From: Actinomycetes bacterium
GTDB taxonomy: Bacteria > Actinomycetota > Thermoleophilia > RBG-16-64-13
Length of the DNA stretch: 35,809 nucleotides
NCBI GenBank assembly: GCA_024637095.1
Contig: JAGXFV010000031.1
Span: 1-35,809 of the forward strand
Reading direction: 5' to 3'
Every line of letters begins with the position of its first letter. The stretch's first letter is position 1. Below are positions 7,827-24,166 of the stretch, in pieces. The notes under the pieces are model-generated. The model was not told the origin of the DNA. It ran no database searches and worked only from the letters and a program-made list of their open reading frames with translations. The position numbers and the translations under genes were made by a program.

Positions 7827-8051
7827 CTAAACCGACTCCACCGAGGTCACTTCGGGGACGGCCTCCATGAGCGTCCGCTCGATGCCCTGCTTGAGCGTCA
7901 TCTGCGACATTGGGCAGCCCCCGCAGGCGCCCACTAGACGAACGTGTACCACGCCGGACTCCTCGTCAACGGAGACCAATTCAACGTCGCCGCCGTCATT
8001 CTGCAGCGCCGGACGCACATGTTGCAGGGCCTGTTCTACTCGTTCCTTCAT
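7827..8051 (-). CDS. NifU C-terminal-domain Fe-S scaffold protein
   Basis: Small Fe-S cluster scaffold or carrier (Nfu type). The 74 residues equal a stand-alone NifU C-terminal domain: [14 protein letters not shown], then [18 protein letters not shown] with the cluster cysteines C43 and C46, and [12 protein letters not shown]. The ATG has GAGGAGGGA upstream; a longer in-frame extension to 8195 is not family-like. It probably delivers clusters to target proteins in the cytoplasm. It is monocistronic, with its own terminator. Confidence 0.92.
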
Positions 8052-8212
8052 GGGGTATTCCCTCCTCTGACGCTCCCGTTCTCGAGCCGCGTCCGAATCC
8101 ATACTAATCCTGTCCATTTTCTCACATTTGGAAACCGATGCGCACCCCGCTGAAAACCGATGCGCACCATGCCCGCAAAACTGCGAATGCCCCAATCGGC
8201 CGCCCCGGAGCG

Positions 8213-23096: not shown

Positions 23097-24053
23097 TCAA
23101 CCGTTATTGCCTGCGGCCTGGTCGTCGATCTCCGCGAACACCGGATTAGTGAGGTAACGCTCACCCGTATCGGGCAGAACCACCACCAAGAGCTTCCCTT
23201 GGTTCTCGGCGCGCCGAGCCACCTGCACTGCCGCGTGGGCGGCGGCGCCGGACGAGATGCCCGCCAGGATGCCCTCGTCGCGGGCCAGGCGGCGCGTCAT
23301 GTCGATCGCTTCCTCGTTGGTGACCTTGACCACCTCGTCGATCACCTCGACGTCCAACACGTCCGGCACGAAACCCGCACCGATGCCCTGGATCTTGTGC
23401 GGCCCCGCTTGCCCACCGGAGAGCACCGGAGAGTCGGCCGGCTCGACCGCGATCAACTGGACTCCGGGCTTGCGCTCCTTGAGCACCTGCCCCACTCCGG
23501 TGATCGTGCCTCCCGTCCCCACGCCCGCGACGAAGATGTCCACCTCGCCGTCCGTGTCGTCCCAAACCTCTTCGGCGGTGGTGAGCCGATGGACCTCGGG
23601 GTTGGCGGGGTTGCTGAATTGCTGAGGGACGAAAGTATCGGGATCTTGCGCTGCGAGTTCCTCCGCCCTCGCGATCGCGCCCTTCATGCCGTCCGCGCCC
23701 GGAGTCAAGACCAGACGCGCTCCGTATGCCTTGAGCAGGGCGCGGCGTTCCAGGCTCATGGTGTCGGGCATGGTCAGGGTGATGCAGTAGCCCTTGGCGG
23801 CCGCCACGAAAGCCAGGCCTATTCCCGTGTTGCCGGAGGTGGGCTCGATGAGGTGAGTCTTGCCCGGGGAGATGAGGCCCTCGCGCTCGGCGGCCTCAAT
23901 CATGCTGAGCGAGATCCGATCCTTGACCGAACCTCCCGGATTGAAGGCTTCCATTTTGGCGACGACCTCGGCCCCCGCACCCTCGGCGACTCGATTGAGT
24001 CGGACCAGGGGCGTCCCGCCAATCAAGTCGGAAAGCCGCTCTTTGATCCTCAT
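23097..24053 (-). CDS. cysK: Cysteine synthase (O-acetylserine sulfhydrylase)
   Basis: PLP enzyme that makes cysteine from O-acetylserine and sulfide. K44 in NPGGSVKDR holds [15 protein letters not shown] binds the substrate carboxylate, [15 protein letters not shown] binds the PLP phosphate, and QGIGAGFVP is typical of CysK. 318 residues, full length. The ATG has GGAGG upstream. No cysE is in the window. The promoter is strong and carries two operator-like repeats, which suggests control by a cysteine-responsive repressor. Confidence 0.96.
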
Positions 24054-24101: not shown

Positions 24102-24136
24102 TAATTCCGATAGGCTTTGTCTATTATTCCCATTGG
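24102..24136 (-). promoter_or_regulatory. Two CymR-like operator repeats in the cysK leader
   Basis: On the plus strand TAATTCCGATAGG (24102-24114) and TTATTCCCATTGG (24124-24136) agree at 10 of 13 positions and are 22 bp apart. On the coding strand they read CCwATsGGAATwA, close to the 'ATnGGAATTT' half of the Rrf2-family CymR box known from cysteine genes. They cover the expected transcription start, a repressor position. Confidence 0.5.
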
Positions 24137-24137
24137 T

Positions 24138-24166
24138 AGATTAGCCGCCGGGGTCGGCGCTGTCAA
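24138..24166 (-). promoter_or_regulatory. cysK promoter
   Basis: TTGACA (24166-24161) and TAATCT (24143-24138) with a 17-bp spacer, read on the minus strand. This gives a leader of about 75-80 nt before the cysK ATG. Confidence 0.75.

What the first reader, a model, noticed from the sequence alone, without database searches (positions are those of the whole stretch)
24102..24166. cysK promoter with two 22-bp-spaced CymR-like boxes
TTGACA-17-TAATCT is followed by two direct copies of CCwATsGGAATwA exactly two helical turns apart over the start site. The motif resembles the Firmicute CymR box, which would be notable in a high-GC genome.
Basis: partly seen in the sequence, partly recalled or inferred. 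Interest (0 to 1): 0.5.

Follow-up and report, generated by a model that had tools for sequence, protein, structure and literature searches.

The report
Iron-sulfur-type repressor site at cysK
In an uncultured actinobacterial lineage, the gene for making cysteine appears to carry a switch site of the type that E. coli uses for its iron-sulfur-cluster genes, and the likely regulator shares features with both the iron-sulfur and the cysteine regulators known from other bacteria.

Summary
Box 2 is one arm of a single ~25-bp operator (24103-24127) just downstream of the -10.

A matrix trained without this genus ranks that operator 1st or 2nd in the window; the other top site precedes nfu (8096-8120). 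A third precedes rrf2 in an rrf2-larE-cysE cluster elsewhere in the genome. In the family, operators accompany the rrf2 orthologue (cysK 7/8 vs 0/8 genes, nfu 7/7 vs 0/8 genomes); in other families nfu lacks one. On E. coli K-12 loci the family matrix picks sites upstream of iscR and nfuA, so the operator is IscR-type-1-like.

The regulator has the IscR cysteine triad without its histidine ligand, ends in ...MYYI, and scores below both the IscR and CymR NCBIfam cut-offs. Most likely it is an Rrf2 repressor tying cysteine synthesis to Fe-S supply. Two-input sensing (cluster plus CysK-binding tail) is possible. Nothing is tested by experiment, and genome-wide the motif alone is not above chance.

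The parts
23097..24053 (-). cysK, O-acetylserine sulfhydrylase (cysteine synthase A), 318 aa; the only match at E<=1e-60 in this genome
24161..24166 (-). -35 hexamer TTGACA of the cysK promoter, present in all 7 operator-bearing family cysK promoters examined
24138..24143 (-). -10 hexamer TAATCT (17-bp spacer)
24103..24127 (-). Rrf2/IscR-type-1-like operator ATAATAGACAAAGCCTATCGGAATT, about +5 to +29 from an assumed start site
   Evidence: one substitution in the same-genus genome
8096..8120 (-). second operator of the same kind in the window, AAAATGGACAGGATTAGTATGGATT, before nfu
7827..8051 (-). nfu: 74-aa protein matching the C-terminal (Nfu) part of NifU/NfuA, Fe-S carrier type (below the full-length equivalog cut-offs)

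Best explanation
The feature is a single ~25-bp operator of the IscR-type-1 kind, lying over the transcription start of cysK. Its most likely ligand is the Rrf2 protein encoded at G000:C6 (about 161389-161823), which carries an IscR-like cysteine triad. I infer that the cluster-loaded protein represses cysK, nfu and its own rrf2-larE-cysE cluster by blocking the promoter or start region, and that cluster loss (iron or Fe-S shortage, oxidation) releases repression so that cysteine synthesis (CysE, CysK) and Fe-S delivery (Nfu) rise together. Shown from sequence: promoter, operator, its conservation, its recurrence at nfu and rrf2, its co-occurrence with the regulator gene inside the family, its likeness to E. 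coli iscR and nfuA promoter sites. Inferred: binding, repression, cluster binding and the sensed signal.
For: Held-out motif: a matrix from 32 promoters without this genus puts the cysK operator 1st, 2nd and 2nd (widths 22, 26, 30) in the 35.8-kb window, the other top site being before nfu; sites centred on box 1 rank 28, 25 and 13. A score of 18 anywhere in the window is reached by 2.5% (w26) and 1% (w30) of 200 block shuffles (cysK scored 20.4 and 18.2). A matrix with no cysK site in it finds an operator before 7 of 8 cysK genes examined in family genomes that have the rrf2 orthologue and before 0 of 8 in genomes that lack it. nfu operator in the family: 7 of 7 against 0 of 8 genomes, by a matrix with no nfu promoter in it. 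A pattern written from these sites finds 24 distinct places in the 7 genomes, 13 of them before nfu (7) or rrf2 (6), against 5 control hits (circular for those 13). The operator starts 4-10 bp after the -10 in the 7 cysK promoters. The family matrix, run on three E. coli K-12 loci, puts its two top places upstream of iscR and its top place upstream of nfuA. The rrf2 orthologue lies directly beside cysK in many Thermoleophilia, and in this genome upstream of cysE. rrf2 promoters of 80 named loci: operator at p<0.05 in 26 of 30 regulators with the triad and 5 of 50 without.
Against: No binding or expression data. In the own genome a degenerate operator pattern is no commoner than its reversed control (9 distinct sites against 10), and a profile model found nothing at E<=10, so sequence alone does not define a regulon. 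The dyad of the cysK site is weak (4 of 12 pairs, reached by 41% of shuffles; nfu 4 of 12, 38%). The genomes are related, so the counts are not independent events. Outside the family, none of 13 genomes that carry the triad regulator (8 of f6, 5 of f3) has a good site before nfu (best score 10.0), so the nfu link is a family trait. G008 has the regulator and the nfu operator but no operator at its more distant (63%) cysK. E. coli erpA ranks only third in its locus, lower with the class matrix; column-permuted matrices do as well per gene in 8% (iscR), 4% (nfuA) and 18% (erpA) of trials. No operator within 1.5 kb of 16 IscU-type genes. The histidine that ligates the E. coli cluster is Gly here.
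Confidence: 0.77

Rival explanations
1. One reading: a CymR-type (cluster-free) Rrf2 binds two tandem 13-bp boxes at cysK in response to cysteine through CysK.
For: Rrf2 family; C-terminal Ile tail and linkage to cysK; the top fold match is B. subtilis CymR, 2y75, just ahead of T. potens IscR; CymR and IscR motifs are reported to be similar.
Against: Box 1 not conserved and the repeat not unusual; the regulator has a cysteine triad; the operator resembles E. coli IscR sites; CymR equivalog cut-off not reached, 107.9 < 195.
Confidence: 0.12
2. Two-input version: the same protein binds an Fe-S cluster through its triad and CysK through its C-terminal Ile, so DNA binding reports both Fe-S and cysteine/OAS status. 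It adds to the best explanation rather than excluding it.
For: C-terminal Ile in 36 of 36 regulators with cysK within 700 bp downstream and in 32 of 43 others (79 of 81 rows with a stop codon seen); M140, Y141, I143 invariant in 29 of 29 aligned; tail residues 138-143 below pLDDT 50 in the model; a C-terminal Ile is the known CysK anchor in CysE and CdiA and is noted for CymR (PMC12895370 and PMC4961446, passages); this CysK has the TSGNT and QQF motifs.
Against: No binding measurement; T. potens IscR also ends in MYYI, so the tail is not a mark of CysK sensing by itself; CysE in this genome also ends in Ile (GLGI) and would compete.
Confidence: 0.38
3. The operator belongs to another regulator (for example the second Rrf2, L005) and the co-occurrence with the C6 Rrf2 is shared ancestry.
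For: A second Rrf2 exists; the cysK and nfu counts come from one family.
Against: The operator also stands in the promoters of the C6 rrf2 orthologues of other families and is mostly absent where the triad is absent; L005 sits on a very long branch apart from this group.
Confidence: 0.1
4. The stretch is a conserved untranslated leader, not a protein site.
For: The leader downstream of the operator is also conserved between the two genus members.
Against: The same motif stands before nfu and rrf2 at other distances from the start codon.
Confidence: 0.03

Closest known systems
E. coli IscR and its type-1 sites (isc, erpA, nfuA)
   Same: Rrf2 fold; C-x5-C-x5-C triad; operator of the same length and similar sequence; own promoter and an nfu gene as likely targets
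   Different: no His at +3 from the third Cys; MYYI end; cysK and rrf2-larE-cysE as likely targets; no operator within 1.5 kb of IscU-type genes; SufB/D not found. Note that a Yersinia iscR deletion also changes sulfur-metabolism genes (PMC4055776, passages), so a link from IscR to sulfur genes as such is not new
Thermincola potens IscR (PDB 4cic)
   Same: best sequence match among solved structures (E 1.1e-24), same MYYI end
   Different: another bacterium; its targets and cluster ligands were not examined here
Bacillus subtilis / Staphylococcus aureus CymR
   Same: Rrf2 fold, regulator of cysteine genes; a C-terminal Ile motif and a CysK complex are reported for B. subtilis CymR
   Different: CymR binds no Fe-S cluster; the operator here resembles IscR sites; NCBIfam CymR cut-off not reached
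Clostridium acetobutylicum CAC2236-CAC2235 (CymR-like gene beside cysK)
   Same: Rrf2 gene directly upstream of cysK
   Different: Firmicute; predicted CymR-type sites; no link to nfu in the passages read

Membership tests
IscR | Rrf2-family winged-helix fold | tested here: met
   Pfam PF02082 127.6 bits; fold match to IscR chains (model of the 97%-identical sister protein)
IscR | three cysteines C-x5-C-x5-C | tested here: met
   C91, C97, C103, invariant in 14 of 14 orthologues aligned
IscR | His107 cluster ligand (E. coli type) | tested here: not met
   the residue 3 after the third Cys is Gly here; E. coli sequence, ligand role from PMC8593673 (passages). Ligands of T. potens IscR not examined
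IscR | type-1 operator | tested here: met
   family matrix picks sites upstream of E. coli iscR and nfuA; erpA third
IscR | controls the iscSUA genes | tested here: inconclusive
   no operator within 1.5 kb of IscU-type genes, 16 of 17 hits scanned; more distant promoters and IscS were not examined
IscR | NCBIfam IscR equivalog cut-off | tested here: not met
   110.7 bits < 207.55
IscR | binds an Fe-S cluster | not testable with these tools
   needs purified protein
CymR | no cluster-binding triad | tested here: not met
   triad present
CymR | C-terminal Ile motif | tested here: met
   ...GMYYI; CymR motif from PMC12895370 passages. Shared with T. potens IscR
CymR | NCBIfam CymR equivalog cut-off | tested here: not met
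   107.9 bits < 195
CymR | forms a complex with CysK | not testable with these tools
   no complex could be measured or predicted here
CymR | published CymR box | not tested
   primary paper not held

The most novel reading that the evidence does not exclude
A Thermoleophilia Rrf2 regulator that combines both known sensing modes: an IscR-like cysteine triad reading Fe-S status and a C-terminal Ile tail reading CysK/OAS status, acting through IscR-type-1-like operators on cysK and its own operon, and in the window's family also on nfu and an rrf2-larE-cysE cluster. In Solirubrobacterales the triad and the operator appear lost while the tail and, in many loci, the cysK neighbourhood stayed, which would be an independent origin of a CymR-like regulator from an IscR-like ancestor.
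Probability: 0.33. Interest if true: 0.7.

Novelty: new variant of a known kind. Interest (0 to 1): 0.46.

Why it matters
Cysteine is the sulfur donor for Fe-S clusters (established knowledge), and in the best-studied systems dedicated regulators are described for each side: CymR for cysteine genes, IscR for Fe-S genes. A regulator that places cysK, cysE and nfu under one IscR-type operator, in genomes where no SufB/D was found, would be a direct supply-and-demand link. The triad/operator/tail pattern across Thermoleophilia would also make the evolutionary step between IscR-like and CymR-like regulators testable.

Tried and rejected
Two tandem boxes: rejected. A profile model built from 26 typed sites, searched over the own genome, gave nothing at E<=10 (93 candidates scored); replaced by matrices and patterns. 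Those 26 sites come from 26 of the 32 held-out promoters; the sites of L009, L084, L089, L091, L123 and L138 (near-copies, a weak site, or N in the promoter) were left out. Genome-wide degenerate pattern in the own genome: 9 distinct sites against 10 control sites. Of these, rrf2, cysK and feoAB were followed; one hit lies inside a reading frame (L148), one just upstream of a TetR-like gene (L152) and one at the start of a dxs-like gene (L153), names from reading the sequence, not followed. feoAB: the 25-mer is conserved 24/25 in the sister genome but scores only 11.7, and a DtxR/IdeR-like box (name recalled) lies nearby; left as tentative. SUF genes as target: rejected, no SufB/D in 7 of 7 genomes, control 14 of 14. 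IscU-type genes as target: no operator in 16 loci. Hit at an oxidoreductase start in G004/G013: not followed. Matrix overlap: the matrix is made of 14 family sites (cysK of this window among them), so the six family rows (L067-L072) are partly training rows; without them 20 of 24 triad promoters pass. In one search cysK genes of G005, G009 and G014, weaker paralogues, and the G006 cysK inside the rrf2-cysK operon were not scanned; the second, weaker nfu matches of G003 and G009 were not scanned.

Full report
What is there. The window comes from a 2.47-Mb genome assembly (G000, window = contig C3). The regulator's orthologues sit in records named Thermoleophilia, Actinomycetes or Actinomycetota, the nearest being isolate Soudan_30 with 97% identity. 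On the minus strand, TTGACA-17-TAATCT precedes cysK; the two 13-mers lie at the coordinates given. CysK is a clear cysteine synthase A.

The pair is not a tandem. The two 13-mers agree at 10 of 13 positions. Such a pair appears in 32% of shuffles of the 147-nt upstream region and in 171 of 243 real tiles of the window, though in only 5.4% of shuffles of the 48-nt core. In the sister genome G001 the promoter aligns without gaps over 110 nt: box 2 and its neighbourhood are kept, box 1 is not.

The real unit. I collected 36 promoters of rrf2 and cysK genes of Thermoleophilia and ran a motif search, which gave a strong motif (log-likelihood 242 and 299 at widths 18 and 22, against 59-81 in three shuffled sets each; the promoters are related, so this overstates the case). 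Trained on 32 promoters without this genus, the matrix ranks the cysK site first (w22) or second (w26, w30) among all positions of the window, while sites centred on box 1 rank 28, 25 and 13. The other top site, 8096-8120, lies before a 74-aa Nfu-type protein. The consensus of 14 family sites is AAnCnnGAnnnnnnnnnTCnnGnTT. Individual sites have weak dyads: the cysK site pairs at only 4 of 12 positions.

Recurrence and co-occurrence. The Rrf2 gene at G000:C6 carries the motif in its own promoter (C6:161348-161372). Of the 18 family (f1) genomes searched, seven have a close orthologue (65-99% identity; the best matches in the others are 31-40% or none). All seven have the operator before nfu; of eight f1 genomes with nfu but no orthologue, none has it (Fisher p = 1.6e-4, not corrected for relatedness). 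With cysK sites left out of training, 7 of 8 cysK genes examined in orthologue-bearing genomes have an operator (p_shuffle <= 0.002 each) and 0 of 8 in the others; the miss is G008, whose cysK is more distant. In the seven cysK promoters the operator starts 4-10 bp after the -10, a position that fits repression (inference). Across 80 named loci, the rrf2 promoter has the operator in 26 of 30 cases when the regulator has the cysteine triad and in 5 of 50 when it does not; without the six partly-training rows it is 20 of 24. Against a wider reading: in the 13 genomes of families f6 and f3 that have the triad regulator and whose nfu region was fetched, nfu has no good site (best 10.0). There I know the operator only before rrf2-cysK.

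Type of operator. I applied the family matrix, which contains no proteobacterial sequence, to three E. coli K-12 loci. The two best places in the isc locus lie 84-133 bp before iscR, the best place in the nfuA locus lies just before nfuA, and the erpA upstream site is third in its locus. Column-permuted matrices do as well on all three together in 0.3% of 300 trials, and gene by gene in 8%, 4% and 18%; with the class matrix iscR and nfuA remain top and erpA falls to seventh (all three 0.7%; gene by gene 16%, 7% and 49%). The review PMC8593673 (passages) names isc, erpA and nfuA as the E. coli type-1 targets. That the places found are the published sites is from recall.

The regulator. It has C-x5-C-x5-C at 91/97/103, invariant in 14 of 14. 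E. coli IscR uses Cys92, Cys98, Cys104 and His107; here the residue at the His position is Gly. It scores 110.7 bits on the IscR model (cut-off 207.55) and 107.9 on the CymR model (cut-off 195). The best solved sequence match is T. potens IscR; the top fold match is CymR, then T. potens IscR (model of the sister protein, mean pLDDT 83.7, residues 101-103 and 138-143 below 50). All 29 aligned relatives, 23 with the triad and 6 without, end in M-Y-x-I. Ile is the last residue in 36 of 36 regulators with cysK within 700 bp downstream and in 32 of 43 others. A C-terminal Ile is the known CysK anchor of CysE and CdiA and is noted for CymR (PMC12895370, PMC4961446, passages); T. potens IscR ends in MYYI too.

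Gene context. In families f6 and f3 and in G006 the order is rrf2-cysK; in many of these loci a thiF-like gene lies downstream. In G006 cysE follows cysK. In the window's genome the order is thiF, rrf2, larE, cysE on one strand, with the operator between thiF and rrf2, and cysK stands in the window with its own operator. CysE ends in ...GI in 6 of 6 genomes (GLGI here), so CysE and the regulator may both address CysK (inference).

Mechanism. Shown from sequence: architecture, conservation, recurrence, co-occurrence in the family, likeness to IscR sites. Inferred: cluster-loaded Rrf2 binds the operator over the start site and represses; cluster loss derepresses cysK, rrf2-larE-cysE and nfu. Possible addition: CysK bound to the tail modulates DNA binding, as reported for B. 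subtilis CymR (PMC2940859, passages).

Limits. No experiment. The own genome is not enriched for the degenerate pattern (9 sites against 10 control sites) and the profile model found nothing. The evidence rests on position and conservation in related genomes. The tree nests the triad-less Solirubrobacterales form among triad forms, but it is midpoint-rooted, has long branches, and 10 of its 35 inner branches are open (weakly supported).

Novelty. Ten searches of the held library listed no paper on an Rrf2 regulator of Thermoleophilia (none with both words), and no listed title or abstract start describes an IscR-type-1 site at cysK. Of ten papers I saw passages found by terms, none in full. 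A Yersinia iscR deletion changes sulfur-metabolism genes (PMC4055776, passages), so the general link is not new. Subscription journals and RegPrecise were not searched.

Noticed in passing
G000, G001, G004, G006, G008, G012, G013 (whole genomes): No SufB/SufD (PF01458) in 7 of 7 genomes although the control rings in 14 of 14; IscU-type NifU_N proteins are present. Notable because most Gram-positive bacteria are said to have only SUF (PMC8593673, passages).
   Followed up: partly
L150 (G000:C40:43408-43432) and L220: feoAB promoter (gene names from reading the sequence): a 25-mer resembling the operator, conserved 24/25 in the sister genome, just upstream of TTGACA; a DtxR/IdeR-like TTAGGGATACCTAAG box lies downstream.
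   Followed up: partly
Solirubrobacterales loci among L093-L145: Rrf2 proteins without the cysteine triad but with an MY[FYHW]I tail, many with cysK within a few kb downstream; they look like an independently arisen CymR-like form.
   Followed up: partly
window 8129-8168: Two 18-nt direct repeats (94% identical), 22 bp start to start, upstream of the nfu operator; part of this is also seen in the sister genome.
   Followed up: no
L005 (G000:C27:10254-10640): Second Rrf2 protein, followed by a cysteine-rich NapH-like membrane protein (name from reading the sequence); possibly an NO or redox regulator.
   Followed up: no
L222 (G000:C6): The rrf2 gene appears to start with TTG and sits between a ThiF/MoeB-like adenylyltransferase and LarE, both of families that work in sulfur transfer.
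   Followed up: partly
L196, L197: A conserved operator-like 25-mer overlaps the start region of an aldehyde-ferredoxin-oxidoreductase-like gene (name from reading the sequence) in G013 and G004.
   Followed up: no
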